NCBI GenBank assembly: GCA_001873635.1
Contig: MNZK01000085.1
Coordinates: 1 to 47,623, forward strand
Length of the DNA stretch: 47,623 nucleotides
Source: Porphyromonadaceae bacterium CG2_30_38_12
GTDB lineage: Bacteria; Bacteroidota; Bacteroidia; Bacteroidales; Paludibacteraceae
Direction: 5' to 3'
Below, piece by piece: positions 42,292-46,835 of the stretch (positions within the stretch are counted from its first letter, which is position 1; every line of letters starts with the position of its first letter). Under the pieces are notes generated by a model. That model was given only the letters and a program-made list of their open reading frames with translations, had not been told where the DNA came from and did not search any database. The position numbers and the translations under genes are program-made.

Positions 42292-44181
42292 ATGGCAGAA
42301 AAAAAATTAAATTTATTCACTGAATTTCCATCCGTTACTACCCAGCAATGGATGGATAAAATCACCGCCGACCTGAAAGGTGCCGATTTTGACAAAAGGC
42401 TCGTATGGAAAACAAACGAGGGCTTTGCTGTAAAGCCTTTTTATCGAGCAGAAGACATTGAAAGCCTGAAAACAACCGATGTTGTGCCAGGAAAATTTCC
42501 TTACGTTCGGGGTACAAAACCCAATAACGATTGGTATGTACGTCAGGATATTGAAGTAACCGACGTGAAACAAGCCAATGCAGTAGCACTTGATGTGCTG
42601 TGCAAAGGAGCAACTTCGTTAGGCTTTAAACTTCAAAAGAAAGATTTAAGTTCTGATTTTATCGCAACCTTATTGAAAAATATTGCCGCAAATTGTGTGG
42701 AGCTTAATTTTTCTATTTGTGTAAGCCGTGCGGCAGATTTAGCCTCTATCCTGACTGACTATTTTAAGTCGCAAAACATTGACACAAGCAAATTAGAAGG
42801 TTCAATAAATTTTGATCCCATGAATCGTATGTTGCTATCAGGCAAGGAACTTTCCAAAGAAGATATTTTTGTCCGAGCAAAAGCAACCATTCAAGCGTCA
42901 TTAGATTTGCCAAAATATCGGGTCATTGGGGTAAACGCCATTACATTAAGCAATGCTGGAGCCTTTGATGCTCAAGAGTTGGGTTATGCCTTGGCTTGGG
43001 GAAATCAATACCTTTCGATGATGATTGAAGCCGGTATTGAGCCCTCAATTGCTGCTAAAAAAATTAAATTTAATTTTGGTGTAGGTGGCAACTATTTTAT
43101 GGAAATTGCTAAATTTCGTGCGGCCAAACTCCTTTGGGCAAATGTGGTGGATGCCTATCAGCCTAAATGCTTGAAAGATACTTGTTCGCATACCGTAGAT
43201 GGCTTTTGTAAATGTGCAGCAAAAATGTACATTCATGCCGAAACTTCGACATTCAACAAAACTATTTTCGATGCCAATGTAAACATGCTTCGTACCCAAA
43301 CCGAAGCTATGAGTGCAACCTTAGGTGGAGTAAATTCACTTACCGTTACTCCTTACGATGCTACTTACAAAACGGCGGACGAATTTTCGGAACGAATTGC
43401 CCGCAATCAACAACTGTTATTAAAAGAAGAATGTCATTTTGATAAAGTAGCTGACCCTGCTGCTGGTTCATATTACATTGAAACTTTGACCAACGAATTA
43501 GCTGCTCAGGCTTGGAAATTATTTCTTGATGTTGAGGATAACGGCGGTTTCTTTGATGCTATCACTTCGGGTTCTGCTCAAAAAGTTATAAAATCAACTG
43601 CTTCAAACCGCTTGAAAGCCGTTTCGAGCCGTCGTGAAGTTTTACTGGGTACGAATCAGTTTCCGAATTTTAACGAAGTTGGTGCAGCTAAAATAACTTT
43701 TGCTCAGGCAGCTGACTGTGGTTGCGACCATAGCGGAACTGAAAAACTATTACCTGTTCGTGGTGCTACGGAATTTGAAGCTTTACGCTTTGCTACCGAA
43801 GCTGCTGCTAAACGTCCGAAAGCGTTTATGCTAACCATTGGAAACTTAAATATGCGTTTGGCGCGTGCTCAGTTCTCGTGTAACTTTTTTGCTTGTGCTG
43901 GTTACGAAGTGATTGATAATCTTGGTTTCAAAACCGTGGAAGAAGGTGTAAGCGCTGCTCTGGAAGCAAATGCCAACATTATTGTACTTTGCTCAAGCGA
44001 CGACGAATATGCTGAACTTGCCCCTGCGGCTTACGAAGTTTCAAAAGGAAAAGCAATTCTTGTTGTTGCCGGAGCTCCTGCTTGTGCCGATGAGTTAAGA
44101 GCGATTGGTATCGAACATTTTGTAAATGTAAAATCGAATGTGCTGGAAACATTGAAAGGTTTTAATTCGAAATTATTTTAA
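42292..44181 (+). CDS. mutA: Methylmalonyl-CoA mutase small (non-catalytic) subunit
   Basis: A 629-residue protein with the mutase barrel fold and a degenerate B12 domain. TQQWMDKITADLKGADFDKR and NPNDWYVRQDIEV-like residues mark the N-terminus; RIARNQQLLLKEECHFDKVA and DPAAGSYYIETLTNELAAQA are barrel signatures. The C-terminal domain lacks the D-x-H-x-x-G cobalamin motif, as expected for MutA. With MutB it interconverts succinyl-CoA and methylmalonyl-CoA (propionate metabolism). Cys293, Cys298, Cys306 and Cys308 cluster in a short insertion near the barrel. The stop overlaps the left inverted repeat of the GxxExxY cassette. Confidence 0.95.
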   Translation: MAEKKLNLFTEFPSVTTQQWMDKITADLKGADFDKRLVWKTNEGFAVKPFYRAEDIESLKTTDVVPGKFPYVRGTKPNNDWYVRQDIEVTDVKQANAVALDVLCKGATSLGFKLQKKDLSSDFIATLLKNIAANCVELNFSICVSRAADLASILTDYFKSQNIDTSKLEGSINFDPMNRMLLSGKELSKEDIFVRAKATIQASLDLPKYRVIGVNAITLSNAGAFDAQELGYALAWGNQYLSMMIEAGIEPSIAAKKIKFNFGVGGNYFMEIAKFRAAKLLWANVVDAYQPKCLKDTCSHTVDGFCKCAAKMYIHAETSTFNKTIFDANVNMLRTQTEAMSATLGGVNSLTVTPYDATYKTADEFSERIARNQQLLLKEECHFDKVADPAAGSYYIETLTNELAAQAWKLFLDVEDNGGFFDAITSGSAQKVIKSTASNRLKAVSSRREVLLGTNQFPNFNEVGAAKITFAQAADCGCDHSGTEKLLPVRGATEFEALRFATEAAAKRPKAFMLTIGNLNMRLARAQFSCNFFACAGYEVIDNLGFKTVEEGVSAALEANANIIVLCSSDDEYAELAPAAYEVSKGKAILVVAGAPACADELRAIGIEHFVNVKSNVLETLKGFNSKLF

Positions 44182-44201
44182 ACACGGAGACACAAAGACA
44201 C
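44176..44201 (+). repeat. Left inverted repeat of the GxxExxY cassette
   Basis: A 26-nt sequence with core AACACGGAGACAC, internally built of GACACAAA-like units, overlapping the mutA stop codon. It is the inverted complement of 44647-44672 with one mismatch out of 26. Confidence 0.85.
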
Positions 44202-44208
44202 AAAGTAA

Positions 44209-44598
44209 ATGAATAAAGAAGAGTTAGATAATATTGGAACTAAAATTGTGGATGCAGCATATTGCGTACATAAAGAATTTGGACCAGGATTATTAGAGTC
44301 TGTTTATGAATTTTGCTTGATAGAAGAATTGAAGTCAAGGAACTTAACTGTAAATAGTCAAGTAAGATTGCCATTAAATTATAAAGGTAAGACTTTGAAC
44401 AAAGAATTTATAATTGACCTTTTGGTTGAAAATGAAATTATTATTGAACTAAAAGCAGTTGAATTTGTACTGCCAGTACATGAAGTTCAACTACTTACTT
44501 ATATGAAACTTGCCGATAAAAAACTTGGATATTTGATTAATTTCAATGTTCCATTAATAAAAGACGGCATACAACGTAAAATACATGGCTACTTCTAA
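44209..44598 (+). CDS. GxxExxY-family protein (PD-(D/E)XK_3 nuclease-like)
   Basis: A 129-residue protein named after its motif, here Gly27-Leu-Leu-Glu30-Ser-Val-Tyr33 within [12 protein letters not shown]. Further on, Asp70 ([10 protein letters not shown]), Glu80-Leu-Lys82 (IELKAVE) and Gln94 ([11 protein letters not shown]) fit the catalytic pattern of PD-(D/E)XK phosphodiesterases. The family is linked to that superfamily in Pfam (PDDEXK_3) as I remember it. Function is unproven; no methyltransferase or immunity gene is beside it. It lies between mutA and mutB and starts 27 nt after the mutA stop. Near-perfect 26-nt inverted repeats frame it, so it looks inserted. The gene is intact. Confidence 0.88.
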
Positions 44599-44604
44599 TA
44601 ATTA

Positions 44605-44626
44605 AAACACGAAGACACAGAGATAC
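44605..44626 (+). repeat. Third, diverged copy of the cassette repeat
   Basis: Directly after the GxxExxY stop, core AACACGAAGACACAG; same orientation as the left repeat with several mismatches. With the right repeat (44647-44672) it can form a hairpin with an 20-nt loop in the mutB leader. Confidence 0.7.
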
Positions 44627-44646
44627 CAAGTTAATATTAAAAAACC

Positions 44647-44672
44647 GTGTCTTAGTGTCTCCGTGTTTAAAA
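44647..44672 (-). repeat. Right inverted repeat of the GxxExxY cassette
   Basis: Complement of the left repeat at 44176-44201, 25 of 26 positions identical. It ends 36 nt before the mutB ATG. Confidence 0.85.
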
Positions 44673-44708
44673 AATTGTCTTTGCGTTCACAAAAACATAT
44701 TAAAAAAA

Positions 44709-46835
44709 ATGAAACCAAATTTTAAAGATATAAATATCAAAGAAATTTCAAACATAGGCACAGCTCCTAAAGTTGAAAGTACATGGTTGACTCCTGAGCT
44801 TATTCCGGTGAAACCATTTTATACAAAAGAAGATATTGCCGGCATGGAGCATTTGAACTATGCTGCCGGTCTTCCTCCATACTTGCGCGGACCTTACTCG
44901 GTAATGTACGCTATGCAGCCTTGGACTATCCGTCAGTATGCCGGATTCTCTACTGCTGAAGAATCCAATGCTTTCTACCGTCGCAACTTAGCTGCCGGAC
45001 AAAAAGGTCTTTCAGTAGCGTTCGATTTAGCTACGCACCGTGGCTACGATGCCGATCACGAACGTGTGGTGGGCGATGTGGGTAAAGCGGGCGTGTCTAT
45101 CTGTTCGGTTGAAGATATGAAAGTTTTGTTCGATGGTATTCCATTGAATAAAATGTCGGTGTCGATGACCATGAACGGTGCTGTGCTTCCTATTCTTGCG
45201 TTTTACATCAATGCAGGTTTAGAGCAAGGTGCTAAATTAGAAGAAATGGCCGGAACTATCCAAAACGATATTTTAAAAGAATTCATGGTGCGCAATACCT
45301 ATATTTATCCACCAAAATTCTCGATGAAAATTATTGCTGATATTTTTGAGTTTACATCGAAAAAAATGCCGAAGTTCAATTCAATTTCTATTTCGGGTTA
45401 CCACATGCAGGAAGCTGGTGCAACTGCCGATATTGAATTGGCTTACACCTTAGCCGATGGGCTTGAATACCTTCGTGCCGGCGTAAATGCAGGTATGGAT
45501 ATCGACTCGTTCGCTCCACGTTTGTCATTTTTCTGGGCTATCGGTATGAATCACTTTATGGAAATTGCCAAAATGCGTGCTGCACGTATGTTGTGGGCAA
45601 AAATCGTAAAACAATTCAATCCTAAAAACCCAAAATCATTGGCATTGCGTACACACTCGCAAACTTCAGGTTGGTCATTGACCGAGCAAGATCCGTTCAA
45701 CAACGTGGGTCGTACTTGTATCGAAGCAATGGCTGCTGCTTTGGGTCACACACAATCGCTTCACACCAATGCGTTGGATGAAGCTATCGCGTTGCCAACC
45801 GATTTCTCGGCTCGTATTGCTCGTAACACACAAATCTACATTCAACAGGAAACTGATATTTGCCGTGAGGTTGACCCTTGGGCTGGTTCATACTACGTTG
45901 AATCTTTGACGAACGAATTGGCTGAAAAAGCATGGGCGTTGATCGAAGAAGTAGAAAAATTAGGCGGTATGGCTGCGGCTATCGAAACTGGTGTTCCCAA
46001 AATGCGTATCGAAGAAGCTTCTGCACGCACACAAGCTCGTATCGACTCGGGAAATCAAATTATTGTGGGTGTAAACCAATATCGTTTGGAAAAAGAAGAC
46101 CCCATTGATATTTTGGAAGTCGATAACACAGCTGTTCGTATTCAACAAATCGAACGTTTGAAACAATTGCGTGCTAATCGCAATGAAGCTGATGTGCAGG
46201 CTGCTTTGGCTGCCATTACCGAATGTGCCCGTACCGGAAACGGTAACTTGTTAGAATTAGCCGTTGAAGCTGCCCGCGTGCGGGCTTCATTGGGAGAAAT
46301 ATCAGATGCCTGCGAAGCAGTGGCAGGTCGTTATAAAGCAACTATTAGAACAATTTCAGGCGTGTATTCATCAGAAACTAAAAACGATGCAAATTTCCAA
46401 CGTGCTTGCGAGCTTACCGAGAAATTTGCCCAAAAAGAAGGTCGTCGTCCCCGCATTATGATTGCTAAAATGGGTCAGGATGGACATGATCGTGGTGCTA
46501 AAGTTGTAGCAACGGGCTATGCCGATTGCGGATTCGATGTGGACATGGGACCCTTGTTCCAAACACCTGCCGAAGCCGCCAAACAAGCTGTTGAAAACGA
46601 TGTTCACGTGTTGGGCGTTTCGTCATTGGCTGCCGGTCATAAAACATTGATTCCACAAGTTATGGACGAATTGAAAAAACTTGGTCGCGAAGATATTATT
46701 GTAATTGCAGGTGGAGTTATTCCGGCGCAAGACTACGATTATCTGTACAAAGCGGGTGTTGCAGCCATTTTTGGCCCAGGTTCTCCTGTAACTAAAGCAG
46801 CTTGTACTATTTTGGATATTTTGTTGGAAGAATAA
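44709..46835 (+). CDS. mutB: Methylmalonyl-CoA mutase large (catalytic, B12-binding) subunit
   Basis: A 708-residue protein. The start at [17 protein letters not shown] (44709) is used; a longer frame would begin inside the inverted repeat. The TIM barrel contains [20 protein letters not shown], the substrate-binding [32 protein letters not shown] and [20 protein letters not shown]. The C-terminal B12 domain has [10 protein letters not shown], with His593 as the lower cobalt ligand, and [16 protein letters not shown] plus [17 protein letters not shown]. It is the catalytic half of the mutase in propionate and succinate metabolism. It is separated from mutA by 527 bp including the GxxExxY cassette. 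A terminator follows at 46876. Confidence 0.97.

What the first reader, a model, noticed from the sequence alone, without database searches (positions are those of the whole stretch)
44176..44672. GxxExxY nuclease-like gene framed by 26-nt inverted repeats and inserted between mutA and mutB
Seen: a 129-codon GxxExxY gene lies between two subunit genes that are normally adjacent. The left arm (44176-44201) and right arm (44647-44672) are inverted and match at 25 of 26 positions. A third, diverged copy follows the gene. The left arm overlaps the mutA stop and the right arm lies 36 nt before the mutB ATG, so both reading frames are spared. Known: GxxExxY proteins belong to a PD-(D/E)XK-like family of unknown function. 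Inference: this is a small cassette that inserts between genes with inverted GACACAAA-type repeats, possibly moved by its own nuclease or by something acting in trans. It carries no transposase.
Basis: partly seen in the sequence, partly recalled or inferred. Interest (0 to 1): 0.72.

Follow-up and report, generated by a model that had tools for sequence, protein, structure and literature searches.

The report
Nuclease gene framed by matching words
A small gene for a DNA-cutting type of enzyme sits between two metabolic genes inside mirror-image arrays of a short DNA word; the word goes with the enzyme's subtype, and the unit comes and goes between related species like a mobile element.

Summary
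A 129-aa GxxExxY gene (TIGR04256/PF13366, RecB/Cas4-like fold) lies between mutA and mutB inside inverted arms, which are tandem arrays of a 7-nt word (here CRCNRAG at 8-nt spacing). The frame is general: arms exceed shuffles in 72 of 97 cassettes from the genus and order and in 66 of 77 loci from many phyla. The word follows the protein subclass: GxGLLE 81 of 87 CRCNNAG, GxGFLE 22 of 26 CRCNNAT, then 18 of 18 armed GxGFLE loci in a later sample. Between arms the fixed word positions rarely differ, the free one often, with no G-U signature: recognition sites rather than an RNA stem. Cassettes mostly lie sense, directly behind stop codons. In one genus the mutA-mutB junction is empty or holds a GxxExxY, S23/IVS or ORF6N gene, with at least 16 changes on the mutB tree; cassette and mutB genealogies differ. 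No target duplication was found. Best reading: a selfish unit that works like RAYT/REP but with a Cas4-like nuclease. Association and turnover are shown; recognition and nuclease-driven movement are inferred.

The parts
44176..44205 (+). left array: three words CACGGAG-A-CACAAAG-A-CACAAAG (44183-44205), starting at the mutA stop codon (TAA 44179-44181)
   Evidence: sequence; inverted repeat I1; pattern scan
44209..44598 (+). GxxExxY protein, 129 aa, subclass GxGLLE; conserved E30, D70, E80, K82, Q94, Y98
   Evidence: TIGR04256 and PF13366; alignments; model pLDDT 96.3, pTM 0.89; fold nearest SSO0001 4ic1
44677..44688 (-). GAACGCAAAGAC, a word of the other GxxExxY lineage that lies at this place in G002, G008 and G022; read here as a possible remnant of an earlier cassette (inference)
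   Evidence: compare L067 and L073 right ends and L084
42292..44181 (+). mutA, upstream host gene (left array begins at its stop)
44709..46835 (+). mutB, downstream host gene

Best explanation
A selfish single-gene cassette of about 0.5 kb. It encodes one small RecB/Cas4-like nuclease and is framed by inverted arrays of that nuclease's own recognition word. Proposed working: the nuclease binds its word arrays and cuts or nicks there, perhaps on hairpin or single-stranded DNA; repair by recombination or template switching then copies the cassette into the same junction of other strains (homing-like) and sometimes to new places. Expression would come by read-through of the host operon, which would account for the sense position directly behind stop codons. 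Gene-less word hairpins would be remnants or non-autonomous copies. Shown here: the frame, the link between word class and protein subclass, constraint on the word rather than on pairing, turnover at a junction, three like copies in one genome, purifying selection. Inferred: binding, cleavage, the part of cleavage in movement, and expression by read-through.
For: Arms in 72 of 97 cassettes of relatives (mismatched pairs 12 of 291) and 66 of 77 loci of many phyla (mismatched 25 of 231, displaced flanks 2 of 65). Word class against subclass 81/87 and 22/26; later sample 18 of 18 armed GxGFLE loci, 23 of 26 in all. Protein-word correlation r 0.33, permutation maximum 0.063; far-flank control -0.05. 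Mismatch between arms by word position: C 4%, R 10%, C 1%, N 36%, R 9%, A 4%, G/T 4%, other 24%. No excess of G-U-compatible changes. Junction turnover, cassette dS unlike mutB dS in both directions. Three like cassettes in G024. Active-site residues kept in 44 of 44 aligned proteins; dN/dS 0.02-0.14 in 29 estimable pairs of 34. Gene-less hairpin with the same words in the same genome (G016:4339-4429).
Against: No binding, cleavage or movement was observed. 25 of 97 and 11 of 77 loci lack arms at the threshold. No target duplication. Presence of S23 and ORF6N genes in the same junctions allows movement by a third party. Replacement at one junction could be plain homologous recombination through mutA and mutB. 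The word-subclass link is post hoc and not corrected for phylogeny, and protein and arms are inherited together. Junction labels taken all together are clustered on the tree (18 changes, shuffled mean 24.7, 0 of 200 as low), mainly through the undetermined and empty groups. Word arrays in 0.8 Mb of G016 are only moderately in excess (59 against 36 control).
Confidence: 0.5

Rival explanations
1. RNA-level intervening sequence: the arms pair in the operon mRNA, RNase III cuts the stem out, and the cassette is tolerated because both neighbours are spared, as for 23S rRNA IVS elements.
For: The transcript folds strongly with the arms paired (MFE -124.7, z -5.9). Sense position in 68 of 73 (GxxExxY) and 30 of 31 (S23) resolved cases. 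S23 elements of rRNA have terminal inverted repeats with tandem heptamers and are cut by RNase III (PMC4990558, passages).
Against: No G-U asymmetry in GxxExxY arms (108 against 115, 104 against 114); the free word position is not kept complementary; the word follows the protein. For S23 the G-U count leans towards RNA without significance (63 against 49, p 0.22).
Confidence: 0.2
2. The arrays are operators: the protein binds them to control its own expression or that of the operon, and the cassette spreads only by homologous recombination of neighbouring DNA.
For: Arrays lie close to the start codon and behind the upstream stop; word-protein link; recombination could give the dS pattern.
Against: Does not explain the inverted array behind the gene, the kept nuclease residues or three like cassettes with unrelated flanks in G024.
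Confidence: 0.18
3. Passive cargo: a factor acting in trans moves any frame with suitable ends, and the enclosed gene (GxxExxY, S23, ORF6N) is interchangeable.
For: Three unrelated families occupy one junction; gene-less frames exist.
Against: Ends differ by enclosed family (S23 arms period 7 or 8, GxxExxY words spaced 8 and more) and by protein subclass, and several kinds occur in one genome.
Confidence: 0.08
4. Mutational by-product: template switching in hairpins keeps the arms alike and slippage makes the words; no protein recognition.
For: Outer flanks of L145 and L201 look inverted beyond the arms (by eye).
Against: Over all loci the 12 nt outside the arms are not more inverted than mismatched pairs (2.85 against 3.19). 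The same word class recurs in many phyla and follows the protein.
Confidence: 0.04

Closest known systems
RAYT/REP units (PMC2817692; abstract and other passages seen)
   Same: One gene for a DNA-cutting enzyme flanked by two inverted short repeats that vary with the protein; gene-less copies of the repeats elsewhere in the genome.
   Different: RAYTs are tyrosine transposases of the IS200/IS605 type and REPs are palindromes with a GT(A/G)G head; here a PD-(D/E)XK protein and arrays of 7-nt words.
23S rRNA intervening sequences with S23 ORF (PMC4990558; passages seen)
   Same: Small ORF inside terminal inverted repeats with tandem short repeats; no transposase; called selfish. The S23 cassettes found here in the same junctions have the same ORF family and heptamer arms.
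   Different: The window gene is GxxExxY, its word spacing is 8, and the place is an operon junction and not an rRNA helix.
TAACTGA heptamer repeats of Beggiatoaceae (PMC4679880; abstract, outline and passages seen)
   Same: Intergenic tandem heptamers, patchy across phyla, in look like the S23-cassette arms.
   Different: Described as direct repeats with a proposed translational role; its main text has no '23S', 'S23' or 'intervening'. The GxxExxY words differ.
Cas4 / lambda exonuclease fold (4ic1, 6m9k)
   Same: Fold and, from recalled knowledge, the E-D-ExK-QxxxY residue pattern.
   Different: Stand-alone 129-aa protein between word arrays; no CRISPR or recombination partner was looked for.

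Membership tests
GxxExxY protein TIGR04256 / PDDEXK_3 PF13366 | profile score over the curated cut-off | tested here: met
   141.9 bits (cut-off 35) and 138.1 bits (cut-off 22)
PD-(D/E)XK nucleases, RecB/Cas4 type | active-site residues and fold | tested here: met
   D70, E80, K82, E30, Q94 invariant in 44 sequences; Foldseek best hit 4ic1, E 4.2e-4, TM 0.50 on the query; nuclease activity itself not tested
RAYT/REP unit | tyrosine (HUH) transposase gene | tested here: not met
   Pfam and NCBIfam give only PDDEXK_3 and GxxExxY at E <= 0.001
RAYT/REP unit | gene flanked by inverted repeats that vary with the protein | tested here: met
DDE insertion sequence | transposase and target-site duplication | tested here: not met
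   the cassette's ORF is not a transposase; no duplication excess, 130 loci
23S rRNA IVS element | S23/IVP ORF and location in rRNA | tested here: not met
   ORF is GxxExxY; it lies between mutA and mutB. S23 cassettes in sister species meet the ORF criterion
23S rRNA IVS element | excision of the RNA by RNase III | not testable with these tools
   only predicted folding
homing endonuclease element | copies itself into the empty allele | tested here: inconclusive
   occupied and empty alleles and discordant genealogies at one site; the process was not observed

The most novel reading that the evidence does not exclude
GxxExxY proteins, present in many phyla and without an assigned role, are the enzymes of a separate class of mobile element: single-gene cassettes whose Cas4-like nuclease reads inverted arrays of a subclass-specific DNA word at the cassette ends and drives its own spread. 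S23 'rRNA intervening sequence' elements would be a parallel class with heptamer arms that lives largely between protein genes, the rRNA examples being the special case.
Probability: 0.45. Interest if true: 0.9.

Novelty: new variant of a known kind. Interest (0 to 1): 0.78.

Why it matters
GxxExxY is a widespread protein family for which the searches here found no assigned role. The data tie it to a DNA word and give a sharp test: GxGLLE proteins should act on CRCNNAG arrays, GxGFLE proteins on CRCNNAT arrays. If so, a fold known from DNA repair and CRISPR spacer processing (recalled) would be the enzyme of a common small selfish element. The function and origin of IVS elements, called unclear in PMC4990558 (passage), could then be studied where their S23 relatives lie between ordinary genes.

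Tried and rejected
Target-site duplication: none for GxxExxY; S23 shows a weak excess at k=5 (7 of 29 against 3.4) and k=6 (4 against 1.3), not followed. Maintenance as an RNA stem: not supported for GxxExxY by G-U asymmetry or by mismatch position. Inverted outer flanks, seen by eye in L145 and L201, did not hold over all loci. Rfam on 43900-44900: four matches, all far under gathering scores. PDB by sequence: one weak hit, 4ic1, E 0.47. Fixed octamer for the whole family: rejected, spacing varies outside the GxGLLE class. First flank table did not turn loci of minus-strand hits; orientation statements rest and later. The dispersed repeat of about 300 nt in the own genome (13 matches) was considered as a non-autonomous partner; similarity runs about 50 nt beyond the words, so this is open.

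Literature: searches listed no paper that I recognised as describing these words or flanking repeats of GxxExxY genes. Listings were read by title and start of abstract; passages of five papers were opened. Supplements, preprints and most subscription journals were not searched.

Full report
What is there. The ORF is a GxxExxY protein. They are arrays of a 7-nt word: three on the left (44183-44205), two clear and one diverged on the right, and a further sense array (44605-44630) that forms a gene-less hairpin with the right one. Three matches of the arm pattern against none in 100 shuffles speak against chance.

The frame is general. 40 of 60 genomes (own included) have a GxxExxY match; the own genome has six matches at five places, of which those on C26, C84 and C118 contain stop codons and those on C110 (the window) and C58 do not. 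I fetched flanks for a large part of the full-length hits, not for all. Of 101 distinct cassettes in these loci, 97 had enough flank; 72 of the 97 have inverted arms above the 99th percentile of shuffles, against 12 of 291 mismatched flank pairs. For S23 it is 29 of 36 against 15 of 108. By their record titles they come from many phyla, among them Proteobacteria, Acidobacteria, Planctomycetota, Verrucomicrobia, Chloroflexota, Cyanobacteria, Cloacimonadota and Bacteroidota. 77 had enough flank; 66 of the 77 have arms, against 25 of 231 mismatched pairs and 2 of 65 displaced flanks. These loci were found through GPGLLES-type patterns and say nothing on other subclasses.

An unbiased scan of 0.8 Mb of one genome held as a single contig (G016) gave 45 inverted frames of score 20 or more; 12 hold an ORF of at least 80 aa. 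Of these, six are 400-600 nt long: two GxxExxY (one broken), three S23, one other (121 aa, in a palindrome cluster). The other six are 677-1113 nt, match neither family, and three of them share one 211-aa ORF. A locally shuffled 60-kb piece gave none, the real one 26 window pairs.

The word follows the protein. Among loci with arms, GxGLLE proteins have mostly CRCNNAG (81 of 87; 3 CRCNNAT, 3 neither), GxGFLE mostly CRCNNAT (22 of 26; 2 CRCNNAG, 2 neither), GxGFQE never mostly CRCNNAG (0 of 13; 3 CRCNNAT, 10 neither). Without arms, and so outside this count, were 28, 13 and 2. In relatives alone the first two are 25 of 29 and 22 of 26. Fisher's p is 1.2e-17 without correction for phylogeny, and the rule was made after seeing arms. 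Both kinds occur in one genome (G024: L027 CACATAG, L145 CGCGGAT), so host composition is not the cause. I then searched 247 genomes drawn over the phylum with one GxGFLE protein (120 with a match) and took the 30 loci returned: 19 of 30 have arms; 18 of 18 GxGFLE loci with arms are CRCNNAT, 23 of all 26 GxGFLE loci, the other 3 having neither word; the one GxGLLE locus has CRCNNAG with arms just under the threshold; mismatched pairs passed in 4 of 30. Protein identity and arm similarity correlate over 130 cassettes (r 0.33; 0.18 for pairs under 55% identity; permutation maxima 0.063 and 0.086); far flanks do not (-0.05).

DNA sites rather than an RNA stem. If pairing were what is kept, the free position of the word would match between arms too. 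It differs in 36% of 260 words, while the fixed C, C, A and G/T differ in 1-4% (in the reverse direction 35% and 1-5%). The words were picked in one arm by the consensus and the pairs come from a local alignment, so the rates are relative. Changes that RNA would tolerate as G-U are not in excess (108 against 115 in 72 loci; 104 against 114 in 60). The transcript would still fold strongly (z -5.9), so an RNA role is not excluded; for S23 the count leans towards RNA without significance (63 against 49).

Position. Where both neighbours could be called by a long-ORF rule, 68 of 73 GxxExxY and 30 of 31 S23 cassettes point the same way as both; 28 and 5 were unresolved. In the many-phyla set it is 47 of 63, with 14 unresolved. 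Left arms begin at the upstream stop codon: median +3 nt (GxxExxY, 64 loci) and -1 nt (S23, 25 loci).

Turnover. mutB was found in 41 of 48 genomes of the genus. Of 40 mutB loci examined, 32 were labelled: 10 GxxExxY, 10 S23, 3 ORF6N, 3 short inserts without ORF (one clearly of heptamer arrays, L080), 6 without cassette (5, 5, 5, 19, 19 and 55 nt); 8 were not determined because mutA was not recognised upstream or the contig ends. In L069, L075 and L084 the cassette lies beside mutB but mutA was not recognised. One ORF6N protein was checked by profile; the other two were matched by eye. The three ORF6N junctions L072, L081 and L090 end in a stretch like the right arm of S23 cassettes, as if one insert had followed another (by eye). 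On the mutB tree the labels need at least 16 changes; GxxExxY (9) and S23 (8) are as scattered as shuffled labels (9.1, 9.0), while the empty group is somewhat clustered (4 against 5.7) and all groups together are clustered (18 against 24.7). It is a tree of one short gene, with 9 of 37 inner branches unresolved. Cassette and mutB disagree in both directions: G035 and G070 have mutB dS 0.70 and cassette dS 0.18; two S23 rows (L083, L186) 0.84 and 0.22; while the window and G002, nearest in mutB dN (0.010), have cassettes at dN 0.35.

A second junction, before a gene that looks like pdxB (name recalled), was examined in 30 loci: GxxExxY in three (one with the upstream gene not recognised), S23 in three (likewise one), gene-less arrays of these kinds in three (L372, L375, L376), C-rich hairpins of another kind in at least six; the rest hold a longer gene or were not resolved. 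Within G024 three cassettes at unrelated places are 83-84% alike, with similarity ending at the arms or within about 50 nt of them. No target duplication was found. The protein is under purifying selection (dN/dS 0.02-0.14 in 29 estimable pairs of 34).

The enzyme. G25, G27, E30, Y33, D70, E80, K82, Q94 and L109 are invariant in 44 sequences. The model (pLDDT 96.3, pTM 0.89) is nearest to SSO0001 (4ic1, E 4.2e-4, TM 0.50) and lambda exonuclease. That SSO0001 is a Cas4 and that Q-x3-Y marks this group is recalled.

Mechanism. I commit to a nuclease-driven, homing-like selfish cassette that reads its own word arrays, at 0.5. Firm: the frame, the word-subclass link, the turnover. Likely: recognition of the word by the protein. 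Inference: cutting as the motor. It would work like a RAYT/REP unit (PMC2817692, abstract and passages) but is not one, since the tyrosine transposase is absent. In anatomy it resembles the 23S rRNA IVS (PMC4990558, passages), whose tandem heptamers inside inverted ends match the S23 cassettes seen here.

Noticed in passing
L069, L071, L074, L075, L079, L083, L086, L093, L094, L186 beside mutB; L096-L125 elsewhere: S23/IVS four-helix-bundle genes in operon junctions inside inverted arrays of heptamers (29 of 36 with arms), far from rRNA.
   Followed up: partly
L072, L081, L090 between mutA and mutB; L073 upstream part: ORF6N genes in the same junction, with a palindrome TTATCACAATTTGTGATAA nearby in L072, L073 and L090; possibly a third kind of small cassette.
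   Followed up: no
G000 C53, C30, C80, C71, C63, C118, C2, C116 (L357-L369): Dispersed non-coding repeat of about 300 nt, 13 matches in the own genome, carrying inverted CACGAAG words.
   Followed up: partly
G000 C38 near 60991-61013 (L040), G016:4339-4429: Gene-less hairpins made of the words, the first between two genes directly behind a stop codon, the second with the words of the cassette at G016:50630-51106.
   Followed up: partly
L377, L379, L381, L387, L389, L398 before the pdxB-like gene; L193 before mutB: Another kind of gene-less hairpin (CCCCTAACCCCTAAAGGGG type) in the same junctions.
   Followed up: no
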